Shown here: positions 37,821 to 48,752 of the stretch, one piece after another
How the letters are laid out: each line of letters opens with the position of its first letter
Position numbering within the stretch: the first letter of the stretch is position 1
Assembly: GCF_000424625.1 (NCBI RefSeq)
Contig: NZ_AUKG01000004.1
Location: 310,001-374,000 of the forward strand
From: Conexibacter woesei Iso977N
GTDB lineage: Bacteria > Actinomycetota > Thermoleophilia > Solirubrobacterales > Solirubrobacteraceae
Direction: 5' to 3'
DNA: 64,000 bases
The notes under the pieces: model-generated
Databases searched by the model: none
What the model was told of the DNA's origin: nothing
Seen by the model: the letters and a program-made list of their open reading frames with translations, nothing else
Position numbers and translations under genes: made by a program

Positions 37821-38768
37821 ATCTGAGCGCGTTCGATGCGCTGCCCGACGCTGTAGGTCCATGCGCTCTCCGCTGCAACCCACGCGGCGGGAGCGAGTAG
37901 AACGGGCCGCGCCCAAAGCGGGACGTCGGCGAAGGCAGCCGGGATGGCCGGCGGAAGAGCGAAGGCCCGCATACAAAGGGCGTTCAAAAAGTCGCTGGTG
38001 TCGCTTCCGTGCACGGTCATCAAGCCATCGTGAGGCGCGCACGGCGCGTTGTCGCGGTTTGGAGTAACGGGCATTTCCAACGACGTTGACGACGAGGCCG
38101 ATCTAGCTTCGGACCGCTCCGTGCGACTTCCCGACTTCGGCGTGACCATGCCTTCTGCATCGGCACGTCGGACGCGCCGTCACGCGATGTCTCGCGCTGA
38201 GTTGCGGTGGTCAGGCCGCTTGGACTGCTCGAACGCGCGCGGTTGATGGGCTTCGTGCCGGTGTCCACGTTCGGACCGTGTCCGAGGCGTTCAAGGTCGC
38301 GCGCGCAGAGGCCGATGCCGTTCGTTTGACCGCGAGCCCTCGCTCCGAGCCGCTCGCCGTCGGTTCCCAAATCCGCTGTCACGTAGGCCTTATCGGTATG
38401 CATGCGCGCGACTCAACCTGAGCGCAACCGTCATCCGGCCCCCTACTGGGGGACTTTAGGTCAGGCCGCTTACGCCCTATCGGCGCAGCGTCCCCCTGCC
38501 GGGGGATTTACGTGAGTTCCGGGTCCGCAGTGTTCGCCCCTGAACTAAACCGTGACGCTGATTCATGTCAAGGTCCGTCCATGTTCGCCGGGGTCGCTGG
38601 GGTTGCCGCGCCAATCGAGCGCGGGACGACCGGAGGACGCGCGAGTGTGGAGCGAGGAATCCGCCGAATGCCCGAAGATGTCTTCGGTGTAGCCGTAAGC
38701 CTGCCGCAAACAACCATGCGTGACCCGTGGCGGATGGATCACGGCGAAGACCGCCACCGGTCGCGCTG
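37821..38768. other. Long gene-poor segment
   Basis: About 950 bases without a gene I can support on either strand. Several open frames of 60-130 codons exist but show arginine-rich or frame-shadow composition and no conserved pattern. The segment is less GC-rich than the rest. It contains the paired C5/G5 boxes at 38439-38512 and grades into a diverged tandem repeat at 38769. It probably represents decayed mobile DNA after the recombinase remnant. Confidence 0.5.
38439..38515. repeat. Two similar C5-N4-G5 hairpin boxes 53 bp apart
   Basis: CCCCCTACTGGGGGACTTTA begins at 38439 and CCCCCTGCCGGGGGATTTAC at 38492. Each can form a 5-bp stem with a four-base loop, followed by a similar A/T-rich motif (GACTTTAGGT and GATTTACGTG). 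The distance of 53 bases is close to five helical turns. No gene start is evident beside them now. A paired binding site for a dimeric regulator or an RNA element is possible. Confidence 0.65.
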
Positions 38769-44720: not shown

Positions 44721-45118
44721 AGGCGGAGGTCCGCGTCGCCGCGGCGGACGATCGCGGTGCCGGCCTGGGTCGCCTCGGAGGACACGTGGACGGTGCCGTC
44801 GTCGTCGACCTTGGTGACCCTGGCGGTGACGGTCAGCTCCTCTTCGAGGACGCCCATGCCGCGGAAGCCGACGCTCAGGCGCTTGAGCGTGTGGGGGCCG
44901 CCGGCGGCGTCGGTGTGGGCGCGGGCGACCTGGGCCATCGTCCAGAGGCCGTGGAGGATCCGGCCGGGGAGGCCGACCTGCTGGGCGAACTCCTCGTCGA
45001 TGTGGATCGGGTTGAAGTCGCCGGAGGCGCCCGCGTAGCGGACGGTGACGTAGCGGTCGGGCGTGACCTTCAGCTCGGGGAGGTCCTGGCCTGCTTCGAA
45101 GTGCATGTGGTCGCTCAC
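44717..45118 (-). CDS. MaoC-type (R)-specific dehydratase/hydratase, catalytic subunit
   Basis: 133 residues with a hot-dog fold. The hydratase 2 motif is intact: YAGASGDFNPIHIDEEFAQQ, where Asp and His are the catalytic pair, followed by LPGRILHGLWTMAQV. It resembles HadB of actinobacteria, which dehydrates 3-hydroxyacyl thioesters in fatty acid elongation. The GTG start at 45116-45118 overlaps the stop of the upstream subunit by GTGA; an ATG four codons on is the alternative. Works as a heterodimer with the next gene product. Confidence 0.87.
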   Translation of the reverse strand: MSDHMHFEAGQDLPELKVTPDRYVTVRYAGASGDFNPIHIDEEFAQQVGLPGRILHGLWTMAQVARAHTDAAGGPHTLKRLSVGFRGMGVLEEELTVTARVTKVDDDGTVHVSSEATQAGTAIVRRGDADLRL

Positions 45119-45543
45119 CCTCGGACGATGTTGGTCCAGGTCCCCACGGAGACGGTGTGGCCGTCCTGGTTGGTGGAGACGGACTCGAACGTGAAGAAGC
45201 CGTTGCCGGCGCGGTGCTCGACGGACTTGACGGAGACCGTCGTCGTGATCTCGTCGCCGGCGACGACCAGCGGGCCCCACTTGAACTCCTGGCCGCCGTG
45301 GACGAGGCGGGCGAAGTCGATCTCCAGCTCGGGGTCGAAGTAGGCGGGCATGATCGCCTGCGAGCAGTAGACGACCGCGAACATCGGCGGCGCGACGACG
45401 TCCGCGTAGCCCGCGGCACGCGCGGCCTCGTGGTCGAGGTGCAGCGGGTTGGTCTCCCCGACCGCGCGGGCGTACTCCTTCACCTTCTCGCGCCCGACCG
45501 CGTACAGGACCGGCGGGTACGTCTTGCCGATGGGTGGCTCCAT
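45115..45543 (-). CDS. FAS1-type dehydratase domain protein, partner subunit (HadA-like)
   Basis: 142 residues, hot-dog fold, starting MEPPIGKTYPPVLYAVGREK. The region corresponding to the hydratase motif reads GETNPLHLDHEAARAAGYAD; in the HadAB/HadBC systems this subunit shapes the acyl tunnel while the other is catalytic. TAGCAT ends nine bases before the ATG, so the pair is probably transcribed from here as a leaderless two-gene operon. The end overlaps the MaoC-type gene by GTGA. Confidence 0.85.
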   Translation of the reverse strand: MEPPIGKTYPPVLYAVGREKVKEYARAVGETNPLHLDHEAARAAGYADVVAPPMFAVVYCSQAIMPAYFDPELEIDFARLVHGGQEFKWGPLVVAGDEITTTVSVKSVEHRAGNGFFTFESVSTNQDGHTVSVGTWTNIVRG

Positions 45544-45555
45544 TGCGCGCGGATG

Positions 45556-46401
45556 CTAGGTGACGCGCGTGTGCTGGGTCGCGACGACGGCGGTGAGGAC
45601 GATGAGCGCGGCGGCGGCGGTTCCCGGGGAGATGTGCTCGCCGAGGATCAGCGCCGACCAGGTGAGGGTCAGGACCGGCTGGGAGAGCTGGACCTGGCCG
45701 ATCTTGGCGACGCCGCCGCGGGCGAGGCCGCCGTACCAGGCGAAGAAGCCGAGGAACATGGAGATCAGCGAGACGTAGGCGAAGCCGAGCCAGCTCGTGG
45801 TGCCGGCGTGCAGGCCGCTCTGCGCCGTGGCGATGGCGGCGATCACGGTCGTGGCGGGGAGCGCGGCGACGAGCGCCCAGCAGATCGTGTTGGCGCCGCC
45901 GAGGTCGCGCGCGAGCCGTCCGCCCTCCGCGTAGCCGAGCGCGCACAGGACGACCGCCCCGAGCAGCTCCACGTCCGGGCCGCTCAGGTCGCCGCCGCCC
46001 TGGCTGAGCGCGAAGCCGACGACCGCCGCGAGCCCGAACGCGCTGGCGCCCCAGAACGCCTTCGTCGGCCGCTCACCCGCGCGCAGGACCGCGAAGGCCG
46101 CCGTCATCGCCGGCAGGACCCCGACGACGACCGCGCCGTGCGAGGCCGGGACGTGGTGCAGCGCCAGCGACGTCAGCAGCGGGAACCCGACGATGACGCC
46201 GAGCGCGACGACGCCGAGGCTCGGCCACTGCCCCACGTCCGGCCTCCTGGCCCGCGTGATCCGCAACACCACGATCGCCAAGACGCCGGCAACGACCGCC
46301 CGCCCGAACGCGACGACCCACGGATCGAGATCGCGGACGGCGAGCCGCGTCGCCGGCAGCGAGAACGAGAAGCCGAGGACACCCAAGAACCCCAACAACA
46401 A
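45556..46401 (-). CDS. EamA/DMT-family transporter
   Basis: Drug/metabolite transporter with about ten membrane spans and two EamA repeats, about 281 residues if it begins at the TTG at 46399-46401 (LLLGFLGVLGFSFSLPATRL). The second repeat ends with FFAWYGGLARGGVAKIGQVQ and LTLTWSALILGEHISPG, typical for the family. The frame stays open far upstream, and an ATG at 46612-46614 would add about 70 residues of unlikely sequence, so the start is uncertain. Divergent from a MocR-type regulator with which it shares GTTACTC repeats, so it is likely controlled by that regulator. The stop is 12 bases from the next gene. Confidence 0.85.
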   Translation of the reverse strand: MLLGFLGVLGFSFSLPATRLAVRDLDPWVVAFGRAVVAGVLAIVVLRITRARRPDVGQWPSLGVVALGVIVGFPLLTSLALHHVPASHGAVVVGVLPAMTAAFAVLRAGERPTKAFWGASAFGLAAVVGFALSQGGGDLSGPDVELLGAVVLCALGYAEGGRLARDLGGANTICWALVAALPATTVIAAIATAQSGLHAGTTSWLGFAYVSLISMFLGFFAWYGGLARGGVAKIGQVQLSQPVLTLTWSALILGEHISPGTAAAALIVLTAVVATQHTRVT

Positions 46402-46471
46402 CCCGGGCGGAAGCGCGCTCGCGCGGCCGAGCCGCGTCGGCTGGGGCTCGCTGACTGCGGGTGCTTCGGGC

Positions 46472-46669
46472 GAGTAACGCTTTCTACCAAGTGCGCCCGT
46501 TTTGGAGTAACGGTTGGCGCTCGGAGCGGCTGCTCGGAGGTCCTCGGCCGGGTCGCCCGACACGACCGGGCGAGGTTGCGAGGCCGTTGACTGCAAGGCA
46601 TCGGAGCAACCCATAGAAGAATTCTGCAATTCCCCTTGCGTTACTCCGCCGCGCCCTGTAGCGTTACTC
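46472..46669. promoter_or_regulatory. Four GTTACTC operator repeats between the EamA and MocR genes
   Basis: GTTACTC occurs on the plus strand at 46640-46646 and 46663-46669, and on the minus strand at 46472-46478 and 46505-46511, most with a GC before and C after. The plus-strand pair (23 bases apart) lies just before the MocR start, the minus-strand pair (33 apart) faces the EamA gene. Direct repeats of this kind are typical MocR/PdxR sites. TAGCGT at 46659-46664 could be the regulator's -10 box. Confidence 0.7.
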
Positions 46670-46678
46670 CTCGTACTC

Positions 46679-48076
46679 ATGATTGACGGTAACACAGAAT
46701 CGCGTGTTATCGAGGATGTGCGGACGGCTGCCCGTGCCCTCCCCCCGGGCAGCCGCCTGCCTTCCGTGCGTGAGCTGATGGCTCGGCATCGCGCTTCACC
46801 GGTCACGGTGCAGCGTGCGCTGTCGCGCCTGGCCGGTGAGGGGCTCGTCGTCCCGCGACCGGGACGAGGCACGTTCGTCGCCGAGAAGCGCGCGACCACC
46901 GAGAAGGCGCCGGACCTCGGCTGGCAGGAGGTCGCGCTCGCCGACCGGCCGCCGCTGCAGGCCGCGCCGCTCGACGCGCTGCTCGCCCTGCCGCCCGATG
47001 GTGCGATCCCGCTCACCGGTGGGTACCTCCATCCCGATCTTCAGCCCGTCGCCGCGCTGGGCGCCGCGCTCGGTCGCGCCGCGCGCCGGCCGGAGCCGTG
47101 GGGACGCCTCGCGGTCGAAGGCCTGCAGCCGCTGCGCGAGTGGTTCGCGCGGGAAGCGGGCGGTCACGTCCGCGGCCACGACGTCGTCATCTGCTCCGGC
47201 GGCCAGCCCGCGCTGGCGACCGCGTTCCGCGCCCTCGCCGCGCCCGGCGAGCCGGTCCTGGTCGAGTCGCCGACCTACCTCGGCGCGATCTCGGCGCTGC
47301 GCTCCGCGGGCCTGCGCGCGGTCCCGGTCCCGACCGACGCCGACGGCGTTCGCCCGGACCTCCTCGCCGCCGCCTTCGCGCTGACCGGCGCGCGCGTCTT
47401 CTACTGCCAGCCTCTGCACGCCAACCCGACCGGCGCGACGCTCGCGCCGCACCGGCGCGCCGCGGTCCTCGACGCGGTCCGGGCGGCGGGCGCGTTCCTG
47501 ATCGAGGACGACTGGGCGCGCGACCTGCGGATCGACGGCGAGGCCCCGCCACCGCTGGCCTCCGACGACCCCGACGGCCACGTCGTCTACCTGCGCAGCC
47601 TCACGAAGTCCGCCGCGCCCGGCCTGCGGATCGCCGCGGTGTCGGCCCGCGGCGCGGCCGGCGCGCGCATCAAGGCCGCCCGGATCATCGACGACTTCTT
47701 CGTCTCCGGACCCCTACAACATGCAACGCTGGAGCTGATCTCCGCGCCCGCCTGGCGCCGCCACCTCAAGCGCCTGCGCGCGGAGCTGCGCGTCCGCCGC
47801 GACGCGCTGACCGCCGCGCTCGGCGAGCACCTCCCGGACTGGCAGCTGCAGGTCGTCCCGGCCGGCGGCTTCCACGTCTGGCTGCGCCTGCCCGACGACG
47901 CCGACGACATCGCGCTGACCGCGCGGGCCGCAGCGGCGGGCGTGCTCGTCTCCCCCGGCCGGCCGTGGTTCGCCGCCGAGCCGCCCGGACCGCACGTGCG
48001 CCTGACCTTCGCCGGCGCGCCCGCACCCGACCTCGTCGAGGGCGTGCGCAGGCTCGCGAAGGTGGCCGCGCAGTGA
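46679..48076 (+). CDS. MocR/PdxR-type regulator (GntR winged helix plus aminotransferase-like domain)
   Basis: 465 residues. N-terminal GntR winged helix: SRLPSVRELMARHRASPVTV followed by QRALSRLAGEGLVVPRPGRG. The rest is a fold-type I aminotransferase domain with ICSGGQPALATAFRALAAPG, CQPLHANPTGATLAPHRR, IEDDWARDL and the PLP lysine in YLRSLTKSAAPGLRIAAV. Such proteins sense PLP or PLP-amino acid adducts and switch a divergent gene. Start at ATG 46679. The EamA transporter next door may export the sensed amino compound. In the EamA-facing and own promoter regions there are four GTTACTC repeats. Confidence 0.92.
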   Translation: MIDGNTESRVIEDVRTAARALPPGSRLPSVRELMARHRASPVTVQRALSRLAGEGLVVPRPGRGTFVAEKRATTEKAPDLGWQEVALADRPPLQAAPLDALLALPPDGAIPLTGGYLHPDLQPVAALGAALGRAARRPEPWGRLAVEGLQPLREWFAREAGGHVRGHDVVICSGGQPALATAFRALAAPGEPVLVESPTYLGAISALRSAGLRAVPVPTDADGVRPDLLAAAFALTGARVFYCQPLHANPTGATLAPHRRAAVLDAVRAAGAFLIEDDWARDLRIDGEAPPPLASDDPDGHVVYLRSLTKSAAPGLRIAAVSARGAAGARIKAARIIDDFFVSGPLQHATLELISAPAWRRHLKRLRAELRVRRDALTAALGEHLPDWQLQVVPAGGFHVWLRLPDDADDIALTARAAAAGVLVSPGRPWFAAEPPGPHVRLTFAGAPAPDLVEGVRRLAKVAAQ

Positions 48077-48101: not shown

Positions 48102-48752
48102 GTGAGCACGATCGTCGCCGTCGCCCCCACGCTGTCCGACGCCGTCCAGTCGGCCGGCGCGACCCTGCACCGCCACGCCGCCGACGGCCATCCGGTGGTC
48201 GTCGTCAGCGTCTTCACGCAGGACGGCGACCCGGACGACGCGGCGGCCGCGGCCGCCTTGGGGCTCTCCGGCGTCGTCCACCTCGCGCTGGAGCCCGCCG
48301 CGCTGCGCGGCTACGAGCACCTCGCCGCGCACGACGGCTTCCGCAGGGGCGACGAGGACACCGCGAGGGTCGCGGCCTCGGTCCTGGCGATCGCGCTCGG
48401 CAAGCTGGAGCCGGACCTGATCCTCGCGCCGCTCGGCCTGACCGGCCACGTCGACCACCTCGTCGTCGAGCGCGCCCTGGACGAGCTGGAGCTCCCGCGC
48501 CTGCGCTGGCTCGATCTCCCCTACGCGCTGCGCCGCACACCCGGCGCGCCGCTGGGCGCCGGCGAGGTCGTGGCGGTCCCGGCGTCGGAGGACGCGCTCG
48601 CCGCGAAGGTCGCGGCCGCGACCGCGTTGGGCGCCGACGCGCCGCGCCTGGCCCAGCACGCGGCCGACGAAGGCGCGCGCCTCGGCGCGGGCGGCCCCGT
48701 CGAGATCCTCGTCAAGCGCGAGCCCGCGGCGCTAGATGATGATGTTGACTGA
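48102..48752 (+). CDS. PIG-L-like deacetylase with degenerate metal site
   Basis: 216 residues, GTG start. Overall pattern of the PIG-L/LmbE fold: a first strand VAVAPTLSDAVQSAGATLHR, then VVVVSVFTQDGDPDD, and LAPLGLTGHVDHLVVERALD. In active family members the first loop reads HPDD with zinc-binding His and Asp; here it is PTLSD, so that site is lost, whereas the second motif H-x-D-H is kept. It may have lost activity or use a different metal arrangement. It follows the MocR gene by 25 bases and overlaps the convergent SDR gene by 21 bases. Confidence 0.65.
   Translation: MSTIVAVAPTLSDAVQSAGATLHRHAADGHPVVVVSVFTQDGDPDDAAAAAALGLSGVVHLALEPAALRGYEHLAAHDGFRRGDEDTARVAASVLAIALGKLEPDLILAPLGLTGHVDHLVVERALDELELPRLRWLDLPYALRRTPGAPLGAGEVVAVPASEDALAAKVAAATALGADAPRLAQHAADEGARLGAGGPVEILVKREPAALDDDVD

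What the first reader, a model, noticed from the sequence alone, without database searches (positions are those of the whole stretch)
46472..46669. Four GTTACTC sites arranged as two facing pairs for a MocR regulator and an EamA exporter
Two sites face each promoter with opposite orientation. This is a clear, testable regulon in which a PLP-binding regulator controls a transporter, possibly exporting an amino compound. The EamA start codon is uncertain and the operator layout may help settle it.
Basis: partly seen in the sequence, partly recalled or inferred. Interest (0 to 1): 0.5.

Follow-up and report, generated by a model that had tools for sequence, protein, structure and literature searches.

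The report
Regulator-transporter pair sharing one start
A vitamin-B6-type regulator and a membrane transporter point away from each other from one shared four-letter start (CATG), so the switch that seems to control them is written inside both genes; the layout recurs in many bacteria, and this genome carries an unusual extra stretch with two more copies of the switch sequence.

Summary
The four GTTACTC copies are real and far beyond chance, but the two-and-two layout is not what it seems.

The MocR-side copies (46640, 46663) belong to an operator conserved across 91 related loci: upstream box A, palindrome B (GTARCGYTAC) and box C inside mocR codons 4-5. In 81 of 83 loci with an EamA neighbour (window included), the EamA frame opens from an ATG sharing CATG with the mocR ATG. 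So A and B lie in EamA codons and C in mocR codons. Rare wobble bases there (T in 89/89 and 81/81) indicate selection on the DNA itself. A DNA-only pattern hit 17 of 396 genomes of the phylum, once each (reversed control 0): 17 had MocR, 15 EamA.

The EamA-side copies (46472, 46505) have no counterpart in any of 91 relatives. They lie in about 200 extra bases of non-coding-like composition, inside the EamA open frame and past every start codon before the conserved region.

Best reading: autoregulated MocR control of a transporter, a known kind, in a compact shared-start form that I did not find described. The EamA-side copies are a local novelty of unknown function. Binding, ligand and transcript starts are untested.

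The parts
46679..48076 (+). mocR: GntR winged-helix domain plus aminotransferase-like domain, 465 aa
   Evidence: Pfam GntR 2e-13, Aminotran_1_2 6e-24; K310, D278, Y200 and R317 in 92 of 92, N249 and R441 in 91 of 92 aligned homologues
45556..46680 (-). EamA (DMT) transporter open frame from the shared CATG, 374 aa
   Evidence: Pfam EamA 5.2e-30, two stretches; frame open from CATG without a stop
46678..46681 (.). CATG containing both start codons (+ ATG 46679-46681, - ATG 46680-46678)
   Evidence: CATG at the mocR start in 90 of 92 loci; EamA frame open from it in 81 of 83 loci with an EamA hit
46636..46646 (+). Box A, TTGCGTTACTC (holds the reported copy at 46640)
   Evidence: GYTAYY at -39 in 49 of 89 loci, RRTARC at -45 in 25, GYTAYY at -46 in 2, no match in 13
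46658..46667 (.). Palindrome B, GTAGCGTTAC (its right half is the reported copy at 46663)
   Evidence: At the same position in 81 of 89 loci; part of the pattern found in 17 of 396 genomes, reversed control 0
46688..46693 (+). Box C, GGTAAC, in mocR codons 4-5
   Evidence: TARC at +11 to +14 in 89 of 92 loci; codon 4 ends in T in 89 of 89
46706..46711 (+). Possible box D, GTTATC, in mocR codons 10-11
   Evidence: Conserved mainly in the nearer group of 46 loci; weaker elsewhere
46665..46670 (+). Candidate mocR -10 hexamer TACTCC overlapping B (inferred)
   Evidence: TANNNT here in 78 of 89 loci; the window itself lacks the final T, and the TA is fixed by the operator anyway
46686..46691 (-). 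Candidate eamA -10 hexamer TACCGT overlapping C, inside mocR (inferred)
   Evidence: TANNNT here in 82 of 89 loci; the TA is fixed by the operator anyway; no transcript data
46441..46632 (.). Extra segment absent from the nearest relatives (edges approximate; net 207 bp against L009)
   Evidence: GC by codon position .64/.61/.66 against .72/.54/.98 in the EamA body; distances; no further copy in the genome
46472..46478 (-). EamA-side GTTACTC copy, inside the EamA frame
   Evidence: absent from 91 of 91 relatives
46505..46511 (-). EamA-side GTTACTC copy, inside the EamA frame, 33 bp from the other
   Evidence: absent from 91 of 91 relatives

Best explanation
A two-gene module in which a PLP-type MocR regulator and an EamA transporter are read in opposite directions from start codons that share CATG. 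MocR most likely binds a composite operator (box A, palindrome B, box C, perhaps D) that overlaps both promoters and lies within the first codons of both genes. Occupancy would repress mocR, because B overlaps its likely -10 region, and switch eamA in response to an amino or B6-like ligand held by PLP. Shown here: gene identities, the conserved element and its fixed geometry, selection on the DNA letters, and open frames from the shared start. Inferred: binding, direction of control, ligand, substrate and leaderless or nearly leaderless transcripts. In this genome about 200 bp lie in the start of eamA without closing the frame and carry two more GTTACTC copies whose role is unknown.
For: EamA frame open from the CATG of mocR in 81 of 83 loci with an EamA hit, no other in-frame start in 51 of the 81. 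B at one position in 81 of 89 loci, C core in 89 of 92, A 23 bp from the like-oriented half of B in both of its forms (positions). mocR codon 4 ends in T in 89 of 89 and EamA codon 7 in 81 of 81, against GC3 of 0.89 and 0.91 in the gene bodies. DNA-only pattern: 17 of 396 genomes, one each, reversed control 0; MocR in 17 and EamA in 15 of these. 22 MocR homologues outside the clade: no palindrome and no usable shared CATG. NCBI annotation has the 2-bp overlap in Arthrobacter sp. U41.
Against: No binding, transcript or protein data. In 9 of 92 loci no EamA was found, and in several the frame from CATG is short: 27, 31 and 27 codons in L081, L083 and L098, 90 in L097. With BenE as partner in Rhodococcus and Prescottella the frame closes after 28-29 codons although CATG, B and C remain, so the C of CATG may be kept for another reason. 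L021 and L110 are out of frame; L157 and L161 show no EamA. Deinococcus aetherius has no CATG there. NCBI chose other transporter starts in Tsukamurella, Rhizobium and Mesorhizobium. The one-mismatch hits elsewhere in the genus are no more frequent than control hits.
Confidence: 0.72

Rival explanations
1. One reading: in this genome the extra segment gave eamA its own control region, and the two EamA-side copies are MocR half-sites there, with translation from GTG 46563 or from a TTG near 46401.
For: Two copies in the segment against none in 20,000 shuffles at that count; composition not coding-like; the 33-bp spacing differs from the 23-bp one by 10 bp, about one helical turn.
Against: Absent from 91 of 91 relatives; the copies lie past all in-frame starts before the conserved region; no promoter-like site was found by the sigma-70 scan; each copy lacks the palindromic left half of B.
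Confidence: 0.2
2. eamA in this genome is being lost or has a tolerated passenger: the segment separates it from its old start and the two copies are leftovers of a rearrangement, for example an inverted partial copy of A-B.
For: Non-coding-like composition of the segment; some similarity between the EamA-side pair and the A-B pair in reverse, matched or exceeded by 6 of 500 shuffles.
Against: Frame intact over the segment; EamA body has normal codon-position GC and 77% identity to the nearest relative. Long EamA N-termini occur elsewhere (L013, L017, L086, L088).
Confidence: 0.25
3. The conserved letters are a promoter signal of the mocR clade rather than MocR binding sites, and another factor or none acts there.
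For: TANNNT hexamers coincide with B and C.
Against: B is a palindrome whose two halves vary together (GTAACGTTAC and GTAGCGCTAC forms); the element occurs with this MocR clade and not with 22 other MocR homologues; MocR operators of two to four boxes are well documented (PMC5320631, abstract and sections on statistics, motif structure and PLP regulons read).
Confidence: 0.12

Closest known systems
MocR-TF regulons with DMT transporter targets (PdxQ and others; Suvorova and Rodionov 2016, PMC5320631)
   Same: PLP-type MocR regulator, operator made of direct and inverted boxes spaced by helical turns, DMT transporters among the targets
   Different: The sections and passages I read do not mention start codons shared by the divergent genes or operators inside both coding regions; the supplementary tables, which may list this group, could not be opened
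GabR of Bacillus subtilis
   Same: MocR architecture; PDB relative of the aminotransferase-like domain (4n0b, E 9.7e-15)
   Different: NCBIfam GabR cut-off not reached (64.8 against 600); different operator sequence (recalled)
LysG-LysE pair of Mycobacterium tuberculosis (PMC5648196, passages read)
   Same: Regulator divergent from an exporter, overlapping promoters, central inverted repeat, one leaderless transcript
   Different: LysR-type regulator and a 108-bp intergenic region, so no shared start
Bidirectional promoters of Escherichia coli (PMC12825309, PMC10268837; search listing and start of abstract only)
   Same: Symmetrical promoter DNA lets polymerase face either way
   Different: Here the two candidate promoters lie on either side of a shared start and inside coding sequence; bidirectional activity was not tested

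Membership tests
MocR subfamily of GntR regulators | N-terminal GntR winged helix joined to an aminotransferase-like domain | tested here: met
   Both Pfam domains above their cut-offs
MocR subfamily of GntR regulators | PLP-binding lysine and neighbouring pocket residues | tested here: met
   K310 in 92 of 92, D278, Y200, R317 in 92 of 92, N249 and R441 in 91 of 92; that this lysine is the PLP lysine follows from the alignment and recalled knowledge
MocR subfamily of GntR regulators | Binds PLP and its operator | not testable with these tools
   Needs purified protein
MocR-type operator | Two to four direct or inverted boxes at distances near whole helical turns (PMC5320631) | tested here: met
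   A, B and C: 23 and 31 bp between like-oriented boxes, conserved
MocR-type operator | The EamA-side pair 46472/46505 is part of it | tested here: inconclusive
   Not conserved in 91 of 91 relatives but beyond chance
PdxR (NCBIfam NF052282) | Score above the curated cut-off | tested here: not met
   232 against 320
EamA / DMT transporters | EamA domains | tested here: met
   104.9 bits against 28.2, two stretches
YddG or YedA exporters | Score above the curated cut-off | tested here: not met
   24.3 against 300 and 39.4 against 270
Leaderless divergent promoters | Transcripts starting at or next to both ATGs | not testable with these tools
   Only hexamer positions are known

The most novel reading that the evidence does not exclude
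A minimal mutually exclusive switch: two leaderless mRNAs start on neighbouring base pairs of opposite strands at a shared CATG, each promoter lies inside the other gene, and one MocR assembly on A-B-C decides which way RNA polymerase faces. The window genome is a natural experiment in which an extra segment split the switch and supplied new half-sites to the transporter.
Probability: 0.35. Interest if true: 0.68.

Novelty: new variant of a known kind. Interest (0 to 1): 0.5.

Why it matters
Divergent overlaps are the rarest class of gene overlap: 457 of about 42,000 in one survey (PMC2478687, passages read). Another statistical study attributes their scarcity to the need for upstream regulatory sequence (PMC2174442, passages read). 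Here a regulator-transporter pair does without intergenic DNA over large evolutionary distances by writing the operator into both coding sequences. It makes a simple system for asking how polymerase chooses between two promoters that face apart from one point. It would correct transporter start annotation in many genomes, and the rare-codon signature could be used to look for other such pairs.

Tried and rejected
Mobile element as source of the extra segment: no trace. Other matches in the genome are 15-57 bp at E 0.02 or worse. In the seven genomes of the genus, the matches outside the window genome are the mocR side of this pair (three genomes) and one 27-bp match elsewhere in G006. Structured RNA in the segment: z-score -1.12. 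Sigma-70 promoter and terminator scan of 46380-46760: none found. A wider regulon: with up to one mismatch the window genome holds only this site, but control hits are equally common at that stringency, so weak wider sites cannot be excluded. Conserved neighbours that might name the substrate: among the clusters printed, the largest cover 7 of 92 loci, four of them Kibdelosporangium; flanks were at most about 2.5 kb. Inverted duplication of A-B as origin of the EamA-side pair: 6 of 500 shuffles did as well, undecided. Coupling of winged-helix residues with the A/G variant of box C was computed but phylogeny confounds it, so no use is made of it. Structure prediction was not run.

Rows dropped before counting: duplicates of the window (L001, L038, L039) and of L047 and L072 (L010, L015), leaving 92 including the window; homologues under 300 bits were not in the 92. 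Of these, 22 served as the control, and for several (for example L002, L003, L004) the true start is uncertain because the match begins late. Searches use 89 loci (without L079, L087, L110), so the C of CATG is 100% there by construction. Of the 17 hits, three (G000, G006, G013) were already in the set and at least three (L152, L158, L159) carry the same 35 bases as L116, L060 and L065, so they are not all independent. Of 17 plasmid records, 15 were listed and 8 opened. One search matched 439 papers and listed 15; one search matched 72 and listed 10.

Full report
What is in the sequence. GTTACTC occurs at 46472 and 46505 on the - strand and at 46640 and 46663 on the + strand. Four copies in 46465-46680 exceed all 20,000 shuffles, whose maximum was 2. 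The MocR-side copies are 23 bp apart and the EamA-side copies 33 bp.

Relatives. The MocR protein was searched in 101 genomes of the family and order and in the genome-contig collection, where 80 of 267 relatives were kept. Without duplicates and with a cut at 300 bits there are 92 loci: the window and 91 relatives at 44-88% identity. They are in Actinobacteria (MAGs titled Conexibacter, Rubrobacteraceae, Micromonospora, Kibdelosporangium, Streptomyces, Nocardia, Arthrobacter, Mycolicibacterium and others) and alphaproteobacteria (Acidisoma, Acidiphilium, Phyllobacterium). Plasmid records add Deinococcus, Rhizobium, Mesorhizobium, Rhodococcus and others.

Shared start. CATG stands at the mocR start in 90 of 92 loci. 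83 have an EamA hit upstream on the other strand, and in 81 of the 83 (80 of 82 without the window) the EamA frame is open without a stop from the ATG in that CATG. In 51 of the 81 there is no other ATG, GTG or TTG before the matched region. L021 and L110 are out of frame. NCBI's annotation has the 2-bp overlap in Arthrobacter sp. U41 and puts the transporter start at this CATG in Deinococcus sp. QL22. It chose other transporter starts in Tsukamurella, Rhizobium and Mesorhizobium. Deinococcus aetherius lacks the CATG.

Loci without EamA. Nine of the 92 have no EamA hit. From the CATG, the other strand stays open for 420-426 codons in L084, L094 and L096, but only for 90 in L097 and 27, 31 and 27 in L081, L083 and L098; these frames were not identified by family. 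In Rhizobium and Mesorhizobium plasmids the partner is an MFS transporter whose frame is open from the CATG. In Rhodococcus and Prescottella it is BenE, and the frame closes after 28-29 codons, although CATG, B and C remain. So CATG is not kept only as a transporter start.

Operator. Aligned on CATG (89 loci), palindrome B (GTARCGYTAC) is at one position in 81. The core of box C (TARC, mocR codons 4-5) is at one position in 89 of 92. Box A is GYTAYY at -39 in 49 loci, RRTARC at -45 in 25, GYTAYY at -46 in 2 and unmatched in 13. In both main forms A lies 23 bp from the like-oriented half of B, and the left half of B lies 31 bp from C (arithmetic on these positions). The reported copies at 46640 and 46663 are box A and the right half of B. 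As the starts overlap, A and B lie in EamA codons and C in mocR codons. Codon use shows selection on the DNA: mocR codon 4 ends in T in 89 of 89, although GAC makes up 85% of aspartate codons in the gene body; EamA codon 7 (GCT, GTT or ACT) ends in T in 81 of 81, although GCT makes up 3% of alanine codons.

Controls. The DNA pattern TARCGYTAY-N10-CATG-N6-RRTARC, sought in 396 genomes of the phylum, matches 17, once each; the reversed pattern matches none. The + strand frame is this MocR in 17 of 17 and the - strand frame is EamA in 15 of 17. L157 and L161 give no EamA match even at E 1. Some of the 17 repeat earlier loci (see Tried and rejected). None of 22 MocR homologues outside the clade has the palindrome or a usable shared CATG, with the caveat that several of their starts are uncertain. 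In the seven genomes of the genus, the six exact matches of the B-C pattern are all at this pair; the three one-mismatch matches elsewhere are no more than the control gives.

What is special here. Against the nearest relative (L009) the window has a net 207 extra bases between CATG and the EamA homology. The segment 46441-46632 has GC of .64/.61/.66 by codon position, against .72/.54/.98 in the EamA body. Long EamA N-termini elsewhere look coding in L013 and L017 (GC3 .95 and .97) but less so in L086 and L088 (.64 and .72), so composition alone does not prove the segment untranslated. The two EamA-side copies lie in it. In the -330 to -60 stretch upstream of mocR no other locus of the 92 has GTTACTC on either strand. 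The frame from CATG is open, so both copies lie in the open frame and past all starts before the conserved region. Whether the segment is translated, is a new control region, or marks a decaying gene cannot be settled from sequence.

Mechanism. Shown: gene identities, the conserved element and its geometry, its position within both coding sequences, open frames from the shared CATG. Inferred from the family: MocR binds it as a dimer and senses an amino compound or B6 vitamer through PLP; pocket residues are conserved, but none of the 25 NCBIfam models listed reached its cut-off, PdxR coming nearest (232 against 320). Inferred from position: B overlaps the likely mocR -10 and C the likely eamA -10 (TANNNT in 78 and 82 of 89), although the TA belongs to the operator anyway and the window's own mocR hexamer lacks the final T. 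Autorepression of mocR with ligand-dependent control of eamA is the likeliest scheme. The substrate is unknown. The exchange of EamA for BenE or MFS in relatives, with BenE called a putative pyridoxine transporter in PMC5320631, makes B6 vitamers a candidate beside amino compounds.

Literature. Suvorova and Rodionov (PMC5320631; abstract, three sections and passages read) describe MocR operators of two to four boxes and DMT transporters among the targets, so the kind is known. A search for MocR with EamA gave no paper. Searches on shared or overlapping starts of divergent or leaderless genes, and on MocR operators within coding regions, listed nothing that describes this layout (listings, with passages of a few papers). 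The library holds openly licensed papers only, the lists were capped, and supplements could not be read, so the claim is only 'not found in these searches'.

Noticed in passing
window 38062-38068 (-): A fifth GTTACTC, isolated; about one is expected in the window by chance.
   Followed up: no
window 48102-48752 (+): A PIG-L family (GlcNAc-PI de-N-acetylase) gene starts 25 bp after mocR; it may be co-transcribed.
   Followed up: no
window 45115-45543 (-): A MaoC/FAS1-type dehydratase gene follows eamA on the same strand.
   Followed up: no
L143 and L146 (Rhizobium and Mesorhizobium plasmids): The same MocR clade diverges from an MFS transporter that is followed by a SidA/IucD/PvdA-family monooxygenase gene, which might hint at an N-hydroxylated amino compound.
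   Followed up: partly
L141 and L145 (Rhodococcus and Prescottella plasmids): The partner is a BenE-family transporter and the shared start is lost, yet CATG, B and C are kept.
   Followed up: partly
L144 (Deinococcus aetherius plasmid): Operator-like letters are present but the CATG is missing, and mocR is annotated further downstream.
   Followed up: partly
L157 and L161: The operator and mocR are present, but the opposite frame is short and no EamA is detected, although its first residues resemble those of EamA in relatives.
   Followed up: partly
box C across the 92 loci: Codon 5 of mocR is AAC in one half of the loci and AGC in the other, and several winged-helix residues vary with it; shared ancestry may explain this.
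   Followed up: partly
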